A stretch of 32,792 bases of DNA from Akkermansia muciniphila (lineage in GTDB: Bacteria; Verrucomicrobiota; Verrucomicrobiia; Methylacidiphilales; Verrucolacustridaceae). A model generated the notes under the pieces. It was not told the DNA's origin and ran no database searches. It saw only the letters and a program-made list of their open reading frames with translations. Of the stretch, positions 10,937-25,858 are shown piece by piece. The stretch is from positions 1-32,792 of the forward strand of contig CAMDXQ010000008.1 of the NCBI GenBank assembly GCA_945878585.1, read 5' to 3'. The position numbers were made by a program, and so were the translations under genes. Position 1 is the stretch's first letter. The number at the start of each line of letters is the position of its first letter.

Positions 10937-12211
10937 ATGAGTAGAAAGACCGATATCATTGTTGTGGGGGCAGGACCTGCGGGTTGTGCCGTTGCGAGAG
11001 CTTATGCTTTGTCCGGAAAAAAAGTGATTTTGTTGGAAGCGGAGCCGGAGGGGAAAAGTCGCAAACGTTTTGCCGGCGAATGGCTTCATCCCCAAGGGGT
11101 TGAAGCTTTGCAGGAGCTGGGTTTTGGGGCGATCACTTCGATGCAGGGGCGGCCCCGTGGTAGGGGTTTTGTGGTTTACCCAGGGCATGGGGAAGCTCCG
11201 GTAAAATTAGACTACGTGGAGGGACAAAGGGGTTTGGCTTTTCATCACGGAGATTTGGTGGATGAAATGCGGCAACTGGTGGCCAAGACCGAGGGGGTAA
11301 ATTTTCGGCAAGGAGTCCGTGTTGCTACGGTGGATGATGGTGGAGTCACCTTAGAGGGTGGGGAGAGGTTAGAAGCGAATCGTGTTGTGGGGGCGGATGG
11401 TCGTTCCAGCGTCGTCCGCAGAAGTTTGCGTGGGGCAGGCAATCATAAGGCGATGTCGGCCATGACAGGAATTTTACTAGAGGGAGTGAACGCCCCCTAT
11501 CCCGATTACGGACACGTCTTTCTGGGGAAACCCAGTTTCCTTCTCGGGTACGAGATTGCTCCGTCGGTGGTCCGAATCTGCGTGGATGTTCCCCTAAAGT
11601 ACAAAACGGAGATGAAGGATCCCGAATGGCTGATTGCAGCCACTCGTGAAACCTTGCCACCTGTCTGGAGGCAACCTTGTGAGGAACAGATCCGTGCGGG
11701 TCATCTTCGTTGGCAAGCCAATCACTTTTTGGCCCGAGCCGACTATGGAAACGGACGCAGGGTTTTGATCGGGGATGCTGCAGGCCACACTCATCCGTTG
11801 ACGGCGACGGGAATCACAAACGGATTGATCGATGCAATGGAGCTCGTCCAAAAGCAAGACTTCCGGGAATTTGCCCGCGCCCGTCGTCGGGCATGCCGGG
11901 TTCCGGAACTTCTGTCCCGAGCTCTCTATGACTGTTTTTCCAAAGAGGATGCTTTTTCCCAATCTTTGCGCCGAGCGGTCGTTTCTCTTTGGCGCAATGA
12001 CGAGAAGGAGAGAGATCGGACGATGGGATTGCTCATGGGAAATGGTCGTTCCTTCCTTACGTTTGCAGGACCTTTTCTAAAGGCTTTGGTCGGAGCATGG
12101 AGGGGGCGAGACAACACCACGACGATGGGAGCGGATTTGGCTTCGATCGCAAGTTGGATTCGGTTGCCGATGGCGTATGCGATGGCGGGTTGGGTGCGGG
12201 CGAAATCGTAG
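10937..12211 (+). CDS. FAD-dependent monooxygenase, squalene monooxygenase/epoxidase-like
   Basis: Rossmann GAGPAG near the N-terminus; GEWLHPQGVEALQELG resembles squalene epoxidase GELLQPGG...LQELG; GADGRSSVVRRSL (DG motif); GDAAGHTHPLTATGITNGLIDA (GD motif, HPLT as in SQMO). Start at ATG 10937; the ORF track GTG at 10910 is possible. Confidence 0.7.
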   Translation: MSRKTDIIVVGAGPAGCAVARAYALSGKKVILLEAEPEGKSRKRFAGEWLHPQGVEALQELGFGAITSMQGRPRGRGFVVYPGHGEAPVKLDYVEGQRGLAFHHGDLVDEMRQLVAKTEGVNFRQGVRVATVDDGGVTLEGGERLEANRVVGADGRSSVVRRSLRGAGNHKAMSAMTGILLEGVNAPYPDYGHVFLGKPSFLLGYEIAPSVVRICVDVPLKYKTEMKDPEWLIAATRETLPPVWRQPCEEQIRAGHLRWQANHFLARADYGNGRRVLIGDAAGHTHPLTATGITNGLIDAMELVQKQDFREFARARRRACRVPELLSRALYDCFSKEDAFSQSLRRAVVSLWRNDEKERDRTMGLLMGNGRSFLTFAGPFLKALVGAWRGRDNTTTMGADLASIASWIRLPMAYAMAGWVRAKS

Positions 12212-12247
12212 AATTCCTATCTACGCCCCAAAAGGTGGCGGCCTGAT

Positions 12248-14191
12248 TTACGAGCGCAAAAAAGCTGCAAAAGCTTTCAAAGGGAAGGCGCGTTTGTAGT
12301 GGTCGTAGCGAATTAACGTAGTTCGGTAAAAGAGGCCGGGAATCGGTTGCGGAGGAAAATCTCCATCCGGCTGTTGCTGTTGTAAGAGAAATTTCAGCCC
12401 TCGAGTGACGGAAGGGTCGTCTTTCGGTCCGCTGGAGAGGAGGGCAATCACTGCCAAGGCGGTGGCTTCGATCAGTCCTTTTTGGCTCGGAATCGGTCGT
12501 CGTTCGACACAGGAATCCGGATGTTCCCCCCAGCCGCCATCAGCCAACTGGTGTTCCAGAAGAAATTTTCTGCCTCGGACAATGCGTGGGTCATCGATGG
12601 GAAGGCCCGCGGCGCGAAGACCGGGCAGAGCAAAGGAGGTTCCGTAGTTGAAACAGATTCCCCAGACCGCTTCCCAGGATCCGTCTGTTTTTTGAGTTTC
12701 GGTCAGGTAACGCAATCCGTTCCGGATCGCCTGATCCACACCGGTTCGCTGCATGTCGGGGTAGGTTTTGCGGATGAGGGCAAGAGCCGAAAGAACCGAT
12801 CCCGTGCACTCGGCAAAGGAGTGATCCACCATGATGTCGGCAAAGACATGGGACGCGTTGAAAATTTCGATCCATTGGGGACCAACCACCTGGTCACAAC
12901 TTCCCCAGCCTCCATCACGGTTCTGGTAACTCAGAATGAAGCGAACTCCTGCCTTGATCACCGTGTGGGGAGCGGGGCTTGGTAGAAACGGCTCCGCATC
13001 GACCAAAGCGAGAAGGCTTTCGGCGGTGCAATCCGCGATCGACCAGCCGTTCTGGCGCTCGCTGAAGGGCCATCCGCCTTTTCGTGGAAGTCGGTGATAA
13101 CGACGGGGGTTGGGAAGTTCGTCGACCACCTGATTTTCCAAAAGGTAGCGACATCCTTTTTCGATCACCCCTCGGGGGGCGAGTTCAGAACTGAGGTGAG
13201 TCATTCCCTGGAGGGTGAACGCGGTGTCCCAGACTTTTGAGGAGGTGAAGCCTTGGCAGGCGATGTGGTCCGGGTGATGCCAAAGGTAACGGGGGAGTTG
13301 ACGCCAACTGCGTTCGACCCGATCGGTCTGTCCCTCCACAAAATGAGCCAAGGTATTATAGCAGGCGTTGACAGGGGCTTGCCGGATGTAGTCCGACTGT
13401 TCGTCCTCGTAACAGATATGCTCATAGGTCAGACGGAGAGCTTTTTTGCGTAGAAACGAAGGAATCCAATTTTCGATTTTGCGTACGATCGGCATGGCAA
13501 GTCGGACGAGGAGGCTTTCTGGAACGATATGATCGGTGGGAGCGAGATCGGCACGATGACGGGGCCAGTCGATCTGATCGAATCCTTGCGGGAAAAGTTC
13601 TTCTCTGAGTTCTTGGAGTAGGGGATCCAGCGGGGCCTGCCATCGGCGACCGTAGAAGTAGGCCATCGGGAGGTAAACAATCCGGACGTAGCCGGAAATG
13701 TTGATCGGTTGAACCGGAACCCAGGAAGGAAGTAGATACAGCTCGGGTGGTACGGGGGTGACCCCGGACCAGTCGTAGAGGTTGAGAATCGCGAGGATGA
13801 ACTTTCCCCAGGCGGCGGCTTTAACGGGTGTTCCAGAGGTGTGGATCCAATCCCTGAGGCGACGTAATTCCGCACGATCCGGCTTTTCACCTAAAAGACG
13901 AAGAGCGACGTAGGAGATAGAGCTCGTAAAGACGGCTCCCTTCTCTGACTCCTCATGAAGTCCGATCGATCCGTCCTGCAGTTGAGGGCGAAGGAGTCCG
14001 GCGACGAACTTTGTGCGCTCGGCTTCTTGCACCTTGCGTTTCGTGAGGTAGGTGGTGATGACATAGAGCGGGAGGAGAAAGTTGGGGCCTGTGTAGGGGA
14101 CCGACCAACTTCCGTCGGCAACTTGGGTCCGTTCAAGGAAACCGAGAAGTCGCCGGGTTGAGTCAGTGACCGACGCTTGCAGGTGGCTCAT
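12248..14191 (-). CDS. Oxidosqualene cyclase (lanosterol/cycloartenol synthase superfamily)
   Basis: 647 aa; DCTAE active-site motif (GWSIADCTAE), DGSWEAVWGICFNYGT, GGWGEHPDSCVERR, RIVYLPMAYFYG, TYEHICYEDEQSDYI, VWDTAFTLQ, YDHYKRAFPLKA, plus multiple QxxDGSW repeats. These match eukaryotic-type OSC rather than SHC signatures. Confidence 0.9.
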   Translation of the reverse strand: MSHLQASVTDSTRRLLGFLERTQVADGSWSVPYTGPNFLLPLYVITTYLTKRKVQEAERTKFVAGLLRPQLQDGSIGLHEESEKGAVFTSSISYVALRLLGEKPDRAELRRLRDWIHTSGTPVKAAAWGKFILAILNLYDWSGVTPVPPELYLLPSWVPVQPINISGYVRIVYLPMAYFYGRRWQAPLDPLLQELREELFPQGFDQIDWPRHRADLAPTDHIVPESLLVRLAMPIVRKIENWIPSFLRKKALRLTYEHICYEDEQSDYIRQAPVNACYNTLAHFVEGQTDRVERSWRQLPRYLWHHPDHIACQGFTSSKVWDTAFTLQGMTHLSSELAPRGVIEKGCRYLLENQVVDELPNPRRYHRLPRKGGWPFSERQNGWSIADCTAESLLALVDAEPFLPSPAPHTVIKAGVRFILSYQNRDGGWGSCDQVVGPQWIEIFNASHVFADIMVDHSFAECTGSVLSALALIRKTYPDMQRTGVDQAIRNGLRYLTETQKTDGSWEAVWGICFNYGTSFALPGLRAAGLPIDDPRIVRGRKFLLEHQLADGGWGEHPDSCVERRPIPSQKGLIEATALAVIALLSSGPKDDPSVTRGLKFLLQQQQPDGDFPPQPIPGLFYRTTLIRYDHYKRAFPLKAFAAFLRS

Positions 14192-15042
14192 TTCTTTGGG
14201 GCCAACTTTTCGATGCGGGCAAGAGTTTGGGTGCGGAAGAGGTCGAGGGCAGATCCGACAAAATTATGGAGGGAAAGATTGGTTTCAAGGAGGGGGCGTA
14301 GATCGAGGGCAAGGACAACCTCCTGTTCGGAATCGGGCTGAGTCGGATTTCCGAATGTGGCTTGGGCGTGTCTTCGACCCAGTGCAGCTCGGTCGTACCG
14401 TTTTCCGCCTTCGACTTGGGAGTGAAAGCAGTTAAGGAGAGAAGTCCCGAGATTTTCAGGGGCGGAACATGGGAGGCGGACGACGTGGGAAGAGGGAACC
14501 CAGTCGAGATCTCCCCATACTTCGCAGCCATAGATTTCCTTGGGTCGAGCTGAGACGGGCAGTTGTTGTAAGGCCTCGAGACAGGCCAGAAGAACGGCGA
14601 TGTGGGTTTCATGTCGGTCGGCAGGGTTGTGTAGATAAAGAGTCTGGGGTCGGGCTACTTCGAGAATCTGGATGAGATCTCCAATCACGGCGGATCGATC
14701 GGTTTGGCGGACGGTTGAGCTGGGGTGAGTCAGTTGAATGACGGAGGCGTATTGCCCGAGATCGGCGGCTTGGCGTTGTTCGGAACGACGGATCTGCATC
14801 AGGTCGGCATCCGAGGTTCGTGCGAACGGGCCGGAGCGTGGAGCTCCCGCACCATCGGTGACCACGACTCCAGAAAAACGATTTTTGGGATGCTGAAAAC
14901 AGGCGGCAATTCCTGGGAAAGCGAGAATTTCGAGGTCATCGGCATGGGCACCGATCCCGAGATGGGTGGTGGAGGAGAGCTCAGCCAAGGGATCTTTTCC
15001 GCTTGGGGCATAGAGGTCTGCAGAGGGTTGAAAGAATTTCAT
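14188..15042 (-). CDS. PIG-L/LmbE-family deacetylase
   Basis: GAHADDLEI (AHxDDxE motif) and NPADRHETH second metal-site motif. ATG at 15040-15042 overlaps the GtrA stop (ATGA); stop overlaps the OSC start (ATGA). Confidence 0.85.
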   Translation of the reverse strand: MKFFQPSADLYAPSGKDPLAELSSTTHLGIGAHADDLEILAFPGIAACFQHPKNRFSGVVVTDGAGAPRSGPFARTSDADLMQIRRSEQRQAADLGQYASVIQLTHPSSTVRQTDRSAVIGDLIQILEVARPQTLYLHNPADRHETHIAVLLACLEALQQLPVSARPKEIYGCEVWGDLDWVPSSHVVRLPCSAPENLGTSLLNCFHSQVEGGKRYDRAALGRRHAQATFGNPTQPDSEQEVVLALDLRPLLETNLSLHNFVGSALDLFRTQTLARIEKLAPKK

Positions 15043-15599
15043 CGGCGAAAGACCCAAAGAGAGGCGAAGAGGTAGTTGAGGAGGGAACCGGTTGCCACGG
15101 CGACGGCATTGAGGACAGCCGTCTCAATGGGGCGATCGGTTTCGAGAAGAAGAAGGAGAAGATTGAGGAGAAAGATCTGAAAGAGAAAAGCGAGGGCAGC
15201 GGAGAGGTAGTAGTTTTTGGCCTGTCTCCACGAGGGGGGCCAAGCATGGAAAGTCCATGCTGCGTTCAGGAGGAAGTTCGTCCCGCAGCAGACAATCCAA
15301 GCCAGCAAGGCAGCTCCCGTGGCAACCCGATGACCGCCTGGATCGAGCCCAAGAAAAATGCTTCCGAGGGAGAGAAGTCCCCACATGAGGAGAGCGTTGA
15401 GAAGGGTTCCAGCGCCACCGACGAGTCCAAAGCGAAGGATTCGGTTGATCTCTTTCGGAAAGGCGCGGGTTCGGGCTCGGGTATGTGGATGGGCGACTTG
15501 GGGCACGGAAACCAGAATGCCGAAAAAGGAGCCGATCGGCAAACGGGGAAAGGCTGGTAGGACTTGCCATCGTCCTGTGGGAAGCGAAGTTCGGGGCAT
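15039..15599 (-). CDS. GtrA-family membrane protein
   Basis: Four hydrophobic segments with GtrA-like pattern: ILRFGLVGGAGTLLNALLMWGL, CGTNFLLNAAWTFHAW, TGSLLNYLFASLWVFRR. Confidence 0.82.
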   Translation of the reverse strand: MPRTSLPTGRWQVLPAFPRLPIGSFFGILVSVPQVAHPHTRARTRAFPKEINRILRFGLVGGAGTLLNALLMWGLLSLGSIFLGLDPGGHRVATGAALLAWIVCCGTNFLLNAAWTFHAWPPSWRQAKNYYLSAALAFLFQIFLLNLLLLLLETDRPIETAVLNAVAVATGSLLNYLFASLWVFRR

Positions 15600-19936: not shown

Positions 19937-22900
19937 ATGAATAGATACTTAAAAATCTTTTCAGGGTTGATTTTGCTGGCTCTTTTTGGTGCCTTTTTTC
20001 TTTTCTTTGCTTGGAGCGAAAAAAAGTTTCCAAATCAGATAAACAAAGTCCCGGTCGCGACTCATGAGAAACCCAAGACCGATGATCCTCATTTACAAGA
20101 ATCGAAAAAAGATGCTCCGCAAAGTTCCGGTGTCGCCTCCTTACCCGGAACAACAACCCCCAACACGCAACTTTCCTTCGTTAAGGCGGATGGCTCACCC
20201 CTACCGAATGTCATTTATCTGAATGCGGGACCGATTGATACGGATCTACCGGGGACAAAGGCCCGGCGACAACCCTTGGCCTACTTTTCGGGAAAGCAGC
20301 TTCAGTTGATCCAGTGGAATGGACCGGTACAAGCGGGGTGGATCGATGAATTGAATCGCCTCGGCGTCGAGATCATTGATTACATTCCAGAGAATGCTTT
20401 CTTGGTCTACGGCGACTGGAAAGTTTTGAGCGCCATGCAAAAAAAGATGGCAGACAAGGATTATGTTCGGTGGGAGGGCTCCTATCGGCCGACGGATAAG
20501 ATCCAGCCTGGCGCATTGGACGCAAGTCGAGAGGAGCCCGATCTTTTTGCGGTACAGATGGTGCTCAACCCGCAGTCCAATCCCGAAACCTTAAAAACCA
20601 TCCGTTCCCTTCAGATTTCTGAAACCATTAAGGAAGAACCTGCTGGAAAGTACTATAATGTCATCACTCGTTTGCCTCCGGTAAAGATTGCCAATCTAGC
20701 AGAGCGACCAGACATCATTTCCATCGGACCCTACACCATCCCAAAAATGTTTTGTGAGCGTCAAGCCATCATCATGACGGGTCAGTTGAATGGAAATGTT
20801 CCAGTGCTGGGGTCTGGGTACCTGACTTGGCTAGCTGGAAAAGGTTTTACTCAAGCGCAGTTTGACGCCTCGGGTCTTGTGGTTGACGTGACGGACTCCC
20901 CAATCGACAACGGCACAGTGAGCCCCAATCACTTCGCCTTATATAAAGGCGGCGATATCGTGAATGCATCAAGGATGGTTTATTCGCGTTTGGAGGGAAC
21001 GGCGAATTCAGGGAGCCGCACTCAAGCAGTCGACGGGCACGGAAATCTGAATGCCCATATCATTGGGGGGCAGGTCAACATGAACACGTCGCCCCATATG
21101 GACTCTTCTGGATTTCATTTTGGGATGGGGATCTGTCCTTTTGTCAAAGTGGGTGGATCGATCATTTTTGACACCAGTTTTTTCACGAACCCGAATTATC
21201 CCAATCTGGCGGCACGGGCCTACCGGGACGGAGTGAGGATCAGTTGTAACTCATGGGGAGCAGACACGGCAGGAGCCTACGATTTGGATGCACAGAGCTA
21301 CGATGCGTTGGTACGGGATGCCCAGCCGACGGGTTCGGCTGTGGCTACGGCTGGCAACCAGCAGGTGACCTTTGTTTTTGCGGCCGGGAATGCCGGATCC
21401 GGGGCTAAGACCGTGGGGTCGCCTGGAACGGCGAAGAATGTGATCACGGTCGGTGCAGCAGAAAATGTTCAAGCATTTGGCGGTGCGGACAGCAGCGGGG
21501 TAGCCGACTCCGGGGCGGATAGTGCGAACGACATCATTGATTTCTCAAGCCGAGGTCCTTGCTCGGACAGCCGAGCCAAGCCGGATATTGTCGCGCCAGG
21601 AACTCATATTTCAGGCGGTGTGCCTCAGGCAGTGAAGACCATGAGTGGAACGGGAACCAAATTGTCTGTTTTTGACGGGTCTGGAGTAAGTGGAGGGGTG
21701 AGCAGCATCTATTTCCCATCGGCTGGACAGCAGTTTTACACTGCCTCTTCCGGAACGAGCCACTCCACTCCCGGAGTCGCGGGAGGGGCAGCGCTCGTTT
21801 ATCAGTGGTTTTTGAACCGAGGATCTGCCGCACCTAGTCCTGCGATGGTGAAGGGGTTTATGATGAATTCTGCCCGTTATATGTCGGGAGTTTTCGCCAA
21901 CGATAATCTTTATTCCAACAACCAGGGAATGGGTATGGTGAATTTGGAAACCTCGTTCGATGGTGTTCCACGTCTGTTGAGGGATCAAGTGACGGCGGAT
22001 CTTTTTACGGCTACCGGACAAAGCCGGACTTGGACGGGGACCGTGACTTCCACAGGAAAGCCGTTCCGGGTGACAGTGGCGTGGACGGATGCGCCAGGGT
22101 CAACCACGGGAAATGCTTATAAAAACAATCTCGATTTGACCGTGGTCGTGAATGGGACGACATACAAAGGAAATGTTTTTACTGGGGCCAATTCGACTTC
22201 CGGTGGGGTGGCTGATGCCAGGAACAATGTGGAAAGCGTGTTTTTGCCTGCGGGTACGAGCGGAAATGTGGCAATCACCGTCGCCGCGACGAACATCAAC
22301 TCGGACGGGGTGCCGAACTACGGGACAACGGTGGATCAAGACTTTGCTTTGGTTGCCTATAACTTTGCGGAAGGGAATCCAGCTCCGACCGTTGTCATGA
22401 CCGCTCCGACAGAGGGTACAACCGTGCTACCCAATGCTCCGGTGACATTAACTGCTACGGCGACTGATCTGACTCTGACAGGTTCGGCAGGAGTAGTGAG
22501 CAAAGTGGAATTCTTTGATGGTACAACTTCCTTGGGTTCCGTGAGTTCTGCCCCTTATTTGGTCGTATGGACTCCAACAGTCAGCGGAGTGCATGTCCTC
22601 ACCGCGAAAGCGACCGACAGTGAAAACGCGGTGGGAATTTCCCCCGCCGTGAACCTGAGGGTTTTGTCGGAAAGCGGGCAACCAACTTTGACCTCCTTCT
22701 CGCCAACCAGCGGAGTAGCTGGAAGCTTGGTGACCATTTCAGGCGATAACTTTGCGGTCGGAGCGGGCACTTCCGTGAAGTTTAATGGGGTGGACGCCGC
22801 ATTCACGGTCAATTCCTTGAATCAGATCACGGCAACGGTGCCCGCCTCAGCCACCACTGGAGTAATCACCGTGGCCACGGCTTATGGGACTGTGGTCAGT

Positions 22901-25858
22901 TTGGGGAACTATACGGTTGTACCGATTGTGTTGAGTGAAGATTTCTCGGCGTTAACGGCAGGAGATAATACGACGACCAGCGGGTCATCTACAGCGTGGA
23001 CGGGAGACACTTTGTTCCCGACCGTGGTGAGAGCATATCAGGCAGGTGGTGCGGTGAAGCTTGGGACGAGTAATGTCATTGGATCGATTACCAGTAAGAC
23101 CTTGGATTTGAGTAGTGGGCCTTTCGACGTGAGTTTTGATGTCAAAGGGTGGAATTCGGCAGGTGAGATCACTGTGACCGCAAATGGCCAAACACAAAAT
23201 GTGACATACACGAGCATTATGAGTGGAAGTTTCGAAACCAAGATTTTGCGTTTTTCGGCCGGTACGGCAAATACTGTGATTACTCTCTCAACCACTAGCG
23301 CAACGAAGAGGGCTTTTTTGGATAACATCATTGTGACGAAAGCGGCCTCGGCTGTCAGTGCGCCTGTAATCAGCAGCTCCCTGACACAGACGGGGACGGT
23401 GGGTGCCACGTTTAATTATCAGATCACGAGCTCTGGAAGCCCGACCTCTTATGGAGCTGCAGGTTTACCTGAGGGACTTGGCATCAACACATCGACGGGA
23501 GCAATCACAGGAACTCCGACTGTGACGGGAACCTCGAATGTGACGATTTCCGCAACGAATGGTTCGGGAACAGGAACGGCCACATTGGTGATTACGGTGA
23601 ACTCATCAGCTTCAGCTCCTGTCATTAGCAGTTCCCTGACACAGTCCGGCCAGGTGGGAAGCATATTTAATTATCAGATCACCGCTTCTGGAAGCCCAAC
23701 CTCCTATGGAGCAACAGGGTTGCCCGTGGGATTGAGCGTCAGCACATCCACTGGGGCAATCACAGGAATTCCGACAGTGGCGGGAACATCAAATGTGACG
23801 ATTTCTGCAACGAACGGATCGGGAACAGGAACGGCCACCCTGGTCATCACGGTGAATCCGAGCAGTGGTGGAGTCACAACTTTACTAAGTGAGGATTTTT
23901 CATCACTCACGACAGGAAGTGAGGCATCACCTTCGACAGTTGAGGTCACGAGCAACCTAACAGCTAACTTTCCAGCATCCATAAAGGCTTTTTCCGCTGG
24001 AGGTAAAGTGAAACTGGGAAACAGCAGTTTGGCTGGTTCCGTAACAAGCAAAACGCTGGATTTAAGTGCGAATGGGGGTGTTTTCAATGTCAGCTTTGAT
24101 GTGAAGGGTTGGACGACTGTAGAAGGTTCAATCAAGGTAACAGTCGGTTCTCTCGCGCCTCAAACAGTTGCCTACAATGCCACGATGTCGTCTGCCTCAT
24201 ATGAGACCAAGACTCTAAACTTTACAGGTGGGCAGGCTAATTCGACGGTTAAAATTGAGACAACCGCGAAACGCGCTTTTATTGATAATGTGATTGTAGC
24301 CACCTCGGGCTCATCCTCGGCACCTGCAGTCAGTGTGAGTGGAACGCTGTCGGCAGTGAACACGACGTATGGAACTGCATCCCCGGTACCGACCAGTTTC
24401 ACAGTCTCCGGTTCAAATCTGACGGAAGGGATTTTGATCAATGCGCCATCGGGTTATGAAGTCTCCCAGACGCCGGGAGGTGCTTCTGGTTACGCCCCCA
24501 CGCAGACGGTAGGTACGGCAGGGACAGTGTCGGGGACAACGATTTATGCGCGCTTGCAGGCGACGGCCCCCGTGGGCACGTATTCCGGAAATATCACTTG
24601 CAACAGTGCCGGATCGGCCGGAGCCATTTTAGCCACGGTGGAAAGTTCTGTGGCAAAGAAGCAGCTTACGATCAGCGGTCTTGTTGGGTTGGATAAAGAG
24701 TATGATGCAACTAATTCAGCAGGAGTTACTGGAACGCCAACTTACCTCGGATTAGTCAACGGAGATGTCTTCAGTGTAACAGGGGTCCCCACCGCCACTT
24801 TTGCAGACAAAAATGTGGGAATAAACAAAGCCGTGACCACCTCAGGATTTACCGACCCAAATGGAAACTATACAGTCACGGCTCCGACGGTGACGGCCAG
24901 TATCACGCCCAAAGAGGTAGTCATCTTGGGGTTAAGCGGGGTTAATAAAACCTATGATGGAACGTCTTCAGGCGCCTTGAGCGGAACGGCTAGCTTGTTG
25001 GGGGTTGAGGCAGCAGATCAGCCAAGTGTGATATTGGGTGGAACTCCATTGGTTTCGTTTGTCAGCGCCAATGCCAGCCCAGCGGTAGAAATGGTGATCT
25101 CCGGATACTCGTTGAACGGTGCAGAAGCAGCGAATTATATATTAATCCAGCCGATCGGTTTGGCAGCGGATATCACTCCGAAGCCGGCCACGATTGTGGC
25201 GAATGACCTTTTCAAGGTTAGTGGTACAACGCTGGTTTTAGGAGCAGGCCAGACAGAATTCACCTCAAGTGGCCTGGTCAGCGGCGAACGAATCGGCTCG
25301 GTGACGCTAATGGCGAGTGGGGGAACGGAAGCGGGTGCACCCCGAGGTATCTATTCCATCACCCCCTCTCATCCCGTGGCTGCGATCACCATTCCTTCGA
25401 ACACATTTCGTGAGGGGAACTATGAGATGACCTACACTCAAGGAAGCTTGAGTGTGATTGATTCTCCGACGACTATCACTCTTTCGGATTGGGCGGATCA
25501 AAATGGTCTTACCGGGGTAGATGCCTTGCCTGATTCGGATCCTGACAAGGATGGAATGTCCAATTTGATGGAGTACTATCTAGGACTTAGTCCAAACAGT
25601 TCTTCAGGTTCAGGAGGAATGTTCAGCCTCTCTAGGGGACTAAATAACACAGTTTCATTAACTTATCGTAGAGCCAAGGGCGTCAGCGGGGTGTCGGCTG
25701 AGGTACAAGCCACCGGGGACCTTTTCAGTATTTGGGGAACGAGTGGGGTGAAGGAAACAGTGGTGGATAAGGGCACTTACGAAGAGGTGACGGCTACGGT
25801 GACAAATGCACCGGGTGAGACGAAAAAGTATATGCGGTTGAGGGTGACTGCGCCGTAG
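19937..25858 (+). CDS. Large secreted S8-family (subtilisin-like) serine peptidase with Ig-like, IPT/TIG, putative-Ig and MBG/YDG-type domains
   Basis: 1973 aa; N-terminal hydrophobic segment; subtilase Asp (VVDVTDSPIDNG), His (DGHGNLNAHIIGG), oxyanion Asn (FAAGNAGSG) and Ser (SGTSHSTPGVAGG); then Ig-like, IPT/TIG, two putative-Ig repeats, KxYDxT-type MBG/YDG repeats and a DSDPDKDGMSNLMEYYLGLSP C-terminal segment. Confidence 0.9.
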   Translation: MNRYLKIFSGLILLALFGAFFLFFAWSEKKFPNQINKVPVATHEKPKTDDPHLQESKKDAPQSSGVASLPGTTTPNTQLSFVKADGSPLPNVIYLNAGPIDTDLPGTKARRQPLAYFSGKQLQLIQWNGPVQAGWIDELNRLGVEIIDYIPENAFLVYGDWKVLSAMQKKMADKDYVRWEGSYRPTDKIQPGALDASREEPDLFAVQMVLNPQSNPETLKTIRSLQISETIKEEPAGKYYNVITRLPPVKIANLAERPDIISIGPYTIPKMFCERQAIIMTGQLNGNVPVLGSGYLTWLAGKGFTQAQFDASGLVVDVTDSPIDNGTVSPNHFALYKGGDIVNASRMVYSRLEGTANSGSRTQAVDGHGNLNAHIIGGQVNMNTSPHMDSSGFHFGMGICPFVKVGGSIIFDTSFFTNPNYPNLAARAYRDGVRISCNSWGADTAGAYDLDAQSYDALVRDAQPTGSAVATAGNQQVTFVFAAGNAGSGAKTVGSPGTAKNVITVGAAENVQAFGGADSSGVADSGADSANDIIDFSSRGPCSDSRAKPDIVAPGTHISGGVPQAVKTMSGTGTKLSVFDGSGVSGGVSSIYFPSAGQQFYTASSGTSHSTPGVAGGAALVYQWFLNRGSAAPSPAMVKGFMMNSARYMSGVFANDNLYSNNQGMGMVNLETSFDGVPRLLRDQVTADLFTATGQSRTWTGTVTSTGKPFRVTVAWTDAPGSTTGNAYKNNLDLTVVVNGTTYKGNVFTGANSTSGGVADARNNVESVFLPAGTSGNVAITVAATNINSDGVPNYGTTVDQDFALVAYNFAEGNPAPTVVMTAPTEGTTVLPNAPVTLTATATDLTLTGSAGVVSKVEFFDGTTSLGSVSSAPYLVVWTPTVSGVHVLTAKATDSENAVGISPAVNLRVLSESGQPTLTSFSPTSGVAGSLVTISGDNFAVGAGTSVKFNGVDAAFTVNSLNQITATVPASATTGVITVATAYGTVVSLGNYTVVPIVLSEDFSALTAGDNTTTSGSSTAWTGDTLFPTVVRAYQAGGAVKLGTSNVIGSITSKTLDLSSGPFDVSFDVKGWNSAGEITVTANGQTQNVTYTSIMSGSFETKILRFSAGTANTVITLSTTSATKRAFLDNIIVTKAASAVSAPVISSSLTQTGTVGATFNYQITSSGSPTSYGAAGLPEGLGINTSTGAITGTPTVTGTSNVTISATNGSGTGTATLVITVNSSASAPVISSSLTQSGQVGSIFNYQITASGSPTSYGATGLPVGLSVSTSTGAITGIPTVAGTSNVTISATNGSGTGTATLVITVNPSSGGVTTLLSEDFSSLTTGSEASPSTVEVTSNLTANFPASIKAFSAGGKVKLGNSSLAGSVTSKTLDLSANGGVFNVSFDVKGWTTVEGSIKVTVGSLAPQTVAYNATMSSASYETKTLNFTGGQANSTVKIETTAKRAFIDNVIVATSGSSSAPAVSVSGTLSAVNTTYGTASPVPTSFTVSGSNLTEGILINAPSGYEVSQTPGGASGYAPTQTVGTAGTVSGTTIYARLQATAPVGTYSGNITCNSAGSAGAILATVESSVAKKQLTISGLVGLDKEYDATNSAGVTGTPTYLGLVNGDVFSVTGVPTATFADKNVGINKAVTTSGFTDPNGNYTVTAPTVTASITPKEVVILGLSGVNKTYDGTSSGALSGTASLLGVEAADQPSVILGGTPLVSFVSANASPAVEMVISGYSLNGAEAANYILIQPIGLAADITPKPATIVANDLFKVSGTTLVLGAGQTEFTSSGLVSGERIGSVTLMASGGTEAGAPRGIYSITPSHPVAAITIPSNTFREGNYEMTYTQGSLSVIDSPTTITLSDWADQNGLTGVDALPDSDPDKDGMSNLMEYYLGLSPNSSSGSGGMFSLSRGLNNTVSLTYRRAKGVSGVSAEVQATGDLFSIWGTSGVKETVVDKGTYEEVTATVTNAPGETKKYMRLRVTAP
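23360..23860 (+). repeat. Two in-frame tandem copies (period 255 nt/85 aa) of a putative-Ig domain
   Basis: Copy 1 about 23360-23605 (APVISSSLTQTGTVGATFNYQITSSGSPTSYGAAGLPEG...) and copy 2 about 23615-23860 (APVISSSLTQSGQVGSIFNYQITASGSPTSYGATGLPVG...) are near-identical at protein and high-identity at DNA level. Confidence 0.9.

What the first reader, a model, noticed from the sequence alone, without database searches (positions are those of the whole stretch)
10937..14191. Putative bacterial sterol/triterpenol locus: squalene monooxygenase-like FAD enzyme convergent with an oxidosqualene cyclase
Seen: the 647-aa cyclase has GWSIADCTAE and WGICFNYGT, so the catalytic Asp and both partner Cys of oxidosqualene cyclases are present (codons 13031-13033, 13028-13030 and 12653-12655 by my count), and no DDTA squalene-hopene motif. 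Its neighbour, 36 bp away tail-to-tail, is an FAD monooxygenase with SQMO-like GEWLHPQG and HPLTATG motifs. Established: oxygen-dependent sterol synthesis starts with SQMO plus OSC, known in few bacteria (e.g. Gemmata, Methylococcus). Inference: this organism makes 2,3-oxidosqualene and cyclises it.
Basis: partly seen in the sequence, partly recalled or inferred. Interest (0 to 1): 0.85.

Follow-up and report, generated by a model that had tools for sequence, protein, structure and literature searches.

The report
Lake bacterium's non-sterol triterpenol gene pair
A common, uncultured lake bacterium carries a squalene-oxidising enzyme next to an oxidosqualene cyclase whose active site resembles those that make five-ring arborane-type lipids rather than sterols, which makes it a testable candidate source for the unexplained isoarborinol found in sediments.

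Summary
Window 10937-12208(+) encodes a squalene-monooxygenase (SQMO) homologue and 12248-14191(-) an intact oxidosqualene cyclase (OSC), convergent, 36 bp apart. The organism belongs to the uncultured freshwater/brackish Verrucomicrobia clade LD19 (subdivision 6, sister to Methylacidiphilum). Both genes occur in all 20 sampled congeners and are under strong purifying selection. No close OSC homologue was found in 393 other Verrucomicrobiota genomes. The genome also has HpnC, HpnD and its own squalene-hopene cyclase.

The inference that oxidosqualene is made and cyclised is well supported. The word "sterol" probably is not. The OSC forms a 99/100-supported clade with Eudoraea (Bacteroidota) OSCs, known for arborane triterpenols, and shares their pocket: W230S, H232Y, T/Y381F, Y503C/V, N697Y (human numbering). 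The H232/Y503 dyad credited with ending the lanosterol cascade is intact in every other bacterial OSC I compared. P450s (20 of 21 genomes) and C4-oxidase relatives (0 of 13) are missing.

Best reading: a two-enzyme pathway from squalene to a pentacyclic, arborane-type triterpenol, beside hopanoids. LD19 is then a candidate aquatic source of isoarborinol-type biomarkers. The product is inferred, not shown.

The parts
10937..12211 (+). Squalene monooxygenase (squalene epoxidase) homologue, 424 aa; FAD site GAGPAG, 'FAGEWLHPQG', 'AFHHGD', 'GDAAGHTHPLTATG'
   Evidence: Pfam SE 77.6 bits; human SQLE best PDB sequence match; AlphaFold model pLDDT 84 whose first three Foldseek PDB hits are all human SQLE (E 4e-31, TM 0.86; next 6.5e-23, TM 0.64); groups with OSC-linked bacterial SQMOs, 93/88
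12248..14191 (-). Oxidosqualene cyclase, 647 aa, Eudoraea (arborane) type
   Evidence: human lanosterol synthase 450 bits; TIGR03463 562 bits; clade with Eudoraea OSC 99/100, 100 with active-site columns masked, 100 with 25 further Myxococcota OSCs
13028..13033 (-). catalytic D387 (13031-13033) and C388 (13028-13030) of the ADCTAE motif
   Evidence: aligned to human D455/C456
12806..12808 (-). C462, equivalent of human C533, second hydrogen-bond partner of the catalytic Asp
13688..13696 (-). Y168 (13688-13690), equivalent of human H232 (final-deprotonation dyad), and S166 (13694-13696), equivalent of W230
   Evidence: H232 present in every other bacterial OSC compared, Y only in LD19, Eudoraea and the plant OSC 8j5z
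12896..12898 (-). C432, equivalent of human Y503 (second half of the dyad); V in Eudoraea
13244..13249 (-). F315 (human T381, 13247-13249) and T316 (human N382), shared with Eudoraea
14188..15036 (-). PIG-L/LmbE-type deacetylase, overlaps the OSC start by 4 bp (start codon uncertain); genus-conserved neighbour, probably not part of the pathway
   Evidence: Pfam PF02585 54.7 bits; upstream of OSC throughout the genus; orthologues in families without OSC
15039..15599 (-). GtrA/DPMS-type membrane protein, genus-conserved neighbour
   Evidence: Pfam PF04138 61.4 bits

Best explanation
The pair is a short, oxygen-dependent triterpenol pathway. HpnC and HpnD (elsewhere in the genome) supply squalene. 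The SQMO (10937-12208) epoxidises it to 2,3-oxidosqualene with O2, FAD and an unidentified reductase. The OSC (12248-14191) protonates the epoxide with D387, helped by C388 and C462, and cyclises it. Because the H232/Y503 pair that deprotonates the tetracyclic cation in lanosterol synthase is replaced by Y168/C432, the cascade is not stopped at the sterol stage but runs on to a pentacyclic, 3-hydroxylated product of the arborane (isoarborinol/eudoraenol) type, as in Eudoraea. No later sterol-modifying enzyme of the searched families was found, so this triterpenol, possibly conjugated, is probably an end-product membrane lipid made alongside hopanoids (own SHC). Shown here: the genes, their families, clade, active-site residues, conservation, and absence of the later genes searched. 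Inferred: enzyme activity, product skeleton, membrane role.
For: OSC clade with Eudoraea 99/100 on a long stem (1.18), unchanged with 40 active-site columns masked and SHC removed and with Group-1-like Myxococcota OSCs added. The two lineages share S230, Y232, V233, I235, Q335, A336, F381, T382, L695, Y697 and loss of Y503; every other bacterial OSC compared keeps H232 and Y503. H232/Y503 are described as the lanosterol deprotonation dyad (PMC9236903), and H232 to Tyr is discussed as leading to pentacyclic products in plant OSCs (PMC6515059). Eudoraea's OSC is, from my own knowledge, the subject of Banta et al. [quoted passage not shown] the paper itself is not held). Eudoraea was likewise listed with only SE and OSC among the sterol genes (PMC4919349). 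P450 missing in 20/21 genus genomes, FA_hydroxylase/ERG25-type missing in all 13 genus genomes searched. HpnC and HpnD over their cut-offs, SHC equivalog 652 bits. SQMO fold and tree; its nearest outside relatives include Methyloceanibacter, whose M. caenitepidi makes cycloartenol with SE GL4_3111 beside OSC GL4_3110 (PMC4919349).
Against: Only 45% identity to Eudoraea OSC, with pocket differences (S/V452, I/V453, A/S454, C/V503, C/M378), so the exact product may differ. Plant isoarborinol synthase TaIAS is closest to cycloartenol synthases (PMC9169793), so H232Y is not known to be required for arboranes. The PF01222 (ERG24) search had no positive control. The MAGs are 63-96% complete. No lipid data exist for this clade that I know of. 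I could not read Banta 2017 and rely on its title and memory for the Eudoraea product.
Confidence: 0.6

Rival explanations
1. Protosterol producer: the OSC makes a tetracyclic sterol (lanosterol, cycloartenol or parkeol) as end product, as in Gemmata or Stigmatella.
For: General OSC homology to lanosterol synthase. I453 (window I385) was reported to mark cycloartenol synthases among tested bacteria (PMC4919349). Gemmata shows that unmodified protosterols can be end products. Nearest SQMOs are from a genus that makes cycloartenol.
Against: H232 and Y503 lost, W230 and N697 replaced; H232 and Y503 are invariant in the other bacterial and human sterol-type OSCs compared. The V/I453 rule labelled Eudoraea a lanosterol synthase, whereas its OSC was later reported to make arboranes, so the rule appears not to hold in this clade.
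Confidence: 0.17
2. Pentacyclic (or other non-sterol) triterpenol of a non-arborane skeleton, for example a hopane-, oleanane- or dammarane-type 3-ol.
For: Y232 and F381 are also found in the plant OSC 8j5z, and Tyr at 232 is described for plant amyrin and lupeol synthases. The pocket differs from Eudoraea at several sites.
Against: The larger set of shared residues (S230, Q335, A336, T382, L695, Y697) ties it to Eudoraea rather than to the plant enzyme.
Confidence: 0.17
3. The FAD enzyme is not a squalene epoxidase (other PHBH-fold monooxygenase or reductase), so the OSC acts as a squalene cyclase or not at all.
For: Only 25% identity to human SQLE; NCBIfam best hits are weak generic families far below cut-off.
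Against: Top three structural matches are SQLE with a clear gap to the rest; Pfam SE over cut-off; paralogous flavoproteins of the order fall outside (78/89, weak); adjacent to OSC genus-wide; relatives adjacent to OSC in other phyla (though those loci were chosen for their OSC).
Confidence: 0.04
4. Misassembly or contamination of the bin by a eukaryote or another sterol-producing bacterium.
For: MAG with 4.4% contamination.
Against: Same gene order from CimA to Obg in independent MAGs of the genus from different studies, and no close homologue outside the genus.
Confidence: 0.01

Closest known systems
Eudoraea adriatica OSC (G504DRAFT_2316; L070), arborane triterpenol synthase (Banta et al. 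2017)
   Same: Sister clade at 99/100; same non-sterol pocket signature; SQMO gene adjacent; no later sterol genes listed
   Different: 45% identity; different phylum; V453/V503/V452 where LD19 has I/C/S; its SQMO is human-like and only ~25% identical to LD19's; genes divergent rather than convergent; only one cyclase matched in its genome while LD19 also has SHC
Methyloceanibacter SQMO-OSC pair (cycloartenol; GL4_3111/GL4_3110 in M. caenitepidi)
   Same: Among the nearest outside relatives of the SQMO (37-38%; 93/88 group); two-gene neighbourhood
   Different: Its OSC is of ordinary sterol type with H232/Y503/I453 and is not sister to the LD19 OSC; genes co-directional
Human lanosterol synthase (1W6K)
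   Same: Full-length homologue, catalytic Asp and both partner Cys kept
   Different: H232, Y503, W230, N697 and T381 all replaced in LD19
Squalene-hopene cyclase
   Same: Same superfamily; LD19 has one of its own
   Different: The OSC lacks the DDTA motif and prefers OSC models by about 340 bits

Membership tests
Oxidosqualene cyclase | Homology over full length, better than to SHC | tested here: met
   450 bits to human LSS; TIGR03463 562 vs TIGR01507 219 bits
Oxidosqualene cyclase | DCTAE with catalytic Asp plus both partner Cys | tested here: met
   D387, C388, C462
Oxidosqualene cyclase | Cyclises 2,3-oxidosqualene | not testable with these tools
   needs expression and GC-MS
Sterol-type (lanosterol/cycloartenol) OSC | H232/Y503 deprotonation dyad | tested here: not met
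   Y168 and C432; dyad role from PMC9236903
Sterol-type (lanosterol/cycloartenol) OSC | Groups with lanosterol/cycloartenol synthases | tested here: not met
   sister to Eudoraea instead
Bacterial sterol biosynthesis pathway | Later genes such as CYP51 and C4-methyl oxidase (not universal: Gemmata ends at lanosterol/parkeol) | tested here: not met
   P450 in 1 of 21 genus genomes, PF04116 in 0 of 13 genus genomes; PF01222 none but without control
Eudoraea-type arborane OSC | Clade membership | tested here: met
   99/100; 100 with pocket columns masked
Eudoraea-type arborane OSC | Shared pocket residues | tested here: met
   10 shared departures from the sterol-type pattern plus loss of Y503; several other pocket sites differ
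Eudoraea-type arborane OSC | Makes arborane triterpenols | not testable with these tools
   no lipid data
Squalene monooxygenase | SE domain and SQLE fold | tested here: met
Squalene monooxygenase | Groups with SQMOs, apart from GGR/UbiH/PHBH-like paralogues | tested here: met
   (93/88 with bacterial SQMOs; split from paralogues 78/89, weak)
Squalene monooxygenase | Epoxidises squalene | not testable with these tools
   needs assay
Squalene-hopene cyclase (considered) | DxDDTA motif and SHC clade | tested here: not met

The most novel reading that the evidence does not exclude
LD19, a globally distributed freshwater bacterioplankton clade, is a major aquatic source of the isoarborinol/arborane lipids of lake and ancient sediments, having paired an arborane-type OSC with an epoxidase of separate ancestry.
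Probability: 0.3. Interest if true: 0.88.

Novelty: new member of a known kind. Interest (0 to 1): 0.7.

Why it matters
Aromatised isoarborinol derivatives occur in Permian and Triassic rocks that predate flowering plants, and their source is described as often ambiguous (PMC10646143). The only bacterial arborane makers known to me are marine Eudoraea. A genus-wide, purifying-selected arborane-type OSC in a widespread lake and brackish plankton clade (LD19; BACL9 per PMC4699468) would give an aquatic, oxygen-requiring bacterial source, and would make a long-standing biomarker question testable by expressing two genes or by lipid analysis of LD19-rich water. It also warns against calling bacterial SQMO+OSC pairs 'sterol' loci without checking residues 232 and 503. 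The 2015 genome paper on this clade noted hopanoid capacity but its main text has no mention of sterol or squalene.

Tried and rejected
PIG-L (14188-15036) and GtrA (15039-15599) as pathway members: conserved upstream of the OSC across the genus and 4-bp overlapping, but PIG-L has 38-50% orthologues in OSC-less families on contigs that do not carry the DUF2017 neighbour, so I regard it as an older neighbour; a role in conjugating the triterpenol is not excluded. V/I453 product rule: gives cycloartenol here but mislabels Eudoraea, so not used. 'Empty site' comparison with other families: PIG-L and DUF2017 lie on different contigs there, no shared site found. Banta 2017 and the PNAS paper with DOI 10.1073/pnas.2101276118 (from memory, Hoshino and Gaucher 2021) are not held, so prior mention of LD19 OSCs cannot be ruled out; Wei 2016 lists one 'Verrucomicrobiaceae bacterium' OSC. 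Promoter/terminator scans were at shuffle level.

Full report
What is there. The 647-aa minus-strand protein is an oxidosqualene cyclase: it aligns nearly end to end with human lanosterol synthase (450 bits) and prefers OSC models over hopene cyclase by about 340 bits. The 424-aa plus-strand protein is a squalene monooxygenase relative: Pfam SE, human SQLE as the best PDB sequence match, and an AlphaFold model (pLDDT 84) whose three best structural matches are all human SQLE (E 4e-31 to 1e-29, TM 0.83-0.86), the next being 6.5e-23.

Whose it is. The window is one contig of a 1.48-Mb bin, 87.7% complete. Relatives found by name are mostly Verrucomicrobia subdivision 6 bins, from lakes and reservoirs as far as the record titles tell, plus the Baltic BACL9 (the lake reading is partly my interpretation). 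BACL9 carries 16S genes 99% identical to the freshwater clade LD19, sister to Methylacidiphilum (PMC4699468). Both genes are hit in all 20 sampled congeners, tail-to-tail wherever the contig allows, in a fixed order CimA, MORN, GtrA, PIG-L, OSC, SQMO, DUF2017, ClpS, CHASE2, Obg. They are absent from the other nine families sampled in the order (only SHCs at about 30% and generic flavoproteins match), and none of 393 other Verrucomicrobiota genomes has an OSC at E 1e-80. dN is 0.06-0.20 with near-saturated dS: the genes are maintained.

Squalene and hopanoids. HpnC and HpnD score over their NCBIfam cut-offs and the separate cyclase at C2:58932-60758 is an SHC equivalog, 652 bits. LD19 therefore has two triterpene cyclases, one for squalene and one, by homology, for oxidosqualene.

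Why probably not sterols. In a tree of bacterial OSCs from the genome scan, human and plant OSC, and the genome's SHC, the LD19 OSCs are sister to Eudoraea OSCs with 99/100 support on a stem of 1.18. The join stays at SH-aLRT 100 when 40 active-site columns are masked and three long branches dropped, so it is not an artefact of pocket convergence, and stays at 100 with 25 further Myxococcota OSCs, including a Group-1-like set. The two lineages share W230S, H232Y, 233V, 235I, 335Q, 336A, 381F, N382T, V695L, N697Y and loss of Y503. Every other bacterial OSC compared keeps H232 and Y503. H232 and Y503 are believed to form the dyad that deprotonates the lanosterol cation (PMC9236903), and Tyr at 232 is discussed as the reason plant amyrin and lupeol synthases proceed to pentacyclic products (PMC6515059). 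Eudoraea's enzyme is reported to make arborane triterpenols (Banta et al. 2017, seen here only as a citation; the assignment to Eudoraea is from memory). In 2016 it had been labelled a lanosterol synthase by the V453 rule, which suggests that the rule does not hold in this clade; the same rule would call the window enzyme a cycloartenol synthase.

Later sterol genes. P450 (PF00067) occurs in 1 of 21 genus genomes, with good controls; PF04116 in none of 13 genus genomes; PF01222 in none, but that search had no positive control. Eudoraea adriatica likewise was listed with only SE and OSC.

Two ancestries. The SQMO tree puts LD19 with Methyloceanibacter, Bradymonadaceae and Polyangiaceae SQMOs (93/88), while Eudoraea's SQMO sits next to human SQLE (100/98). 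So the arborane-type OSC is partnered by different lineages of epoxidase in the two groups, and gene order differs too: convergent in LD19, divergent in Eudoraea, co-directional in Methyloceanibacter. Methyloceanibacter caenitepidi makes cycloartenol, organism-level evidence that this SQMO lineage supplies oxidosqualene.

How sure. That the pair makes and cyclises oxidosqualene: about 0.9. That the product is a non-sterol pentacyclic triterpenol: about 0.75. That it is of arborane type: about 0.6. Nothing was measured; pocket differences from Eudoraea leave the exact product open. Sample limits: named Gemmata, Methylococcus and Labilithrix OSCs were not in the tree, and the genome scan used two short peptide patterns, so other members of this clade could exist.

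Significance. The link from LD19 to lake isoarborinol is my inference; that isoarborinol in lakes has been suspected to have an aquatic source is from my own knowledge, while the ambiguity of its source and its pre-angiosperm record are in PMC10646143.

Noticed in passing
window 14188-15599 (-): GtrA-type membrane protein and PIG-L/LmbE-type deacetylase directly upstream of and overlapping the OSC, conserved across the genus; PIG-L orthologues exist without OSC in other families. A role in making or moving a glycolipid conjugate is open.
   Followed up: partly
L053 (JASGCJ010000001.1): Record titled 'Candidatus Paceibacterota bacterium' carries the LD19 locus in full synteny and falls in this genus; the title looks like a mislabel.
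   Followed up: partly
L043 (G016:C106): The only genus genome with a cytochrome P450 (E 2e-40); identity not examined, it could be contamination or a triterpenoid-tailoring enzyme.
   Followed up: no
G013:C9 and G013:C19: SQMO and DUF2017 sequences occur on two contigs in this bin (6% contamination), probably two strains.
   Followed up: no
window 19937-25858 (+): 1973-aa subtilase with Ig-like and YDG repeats, large for a small genome.
   Followed up: no
L134-L148 (Myxococcota): A second myxobacterial OSC group with Y230, A381, F697 (Group-1-like) distinct from the W230/Y381/N697 group; several lie in open frames over 1100 aa, possibly fusions.
   Followed up: no
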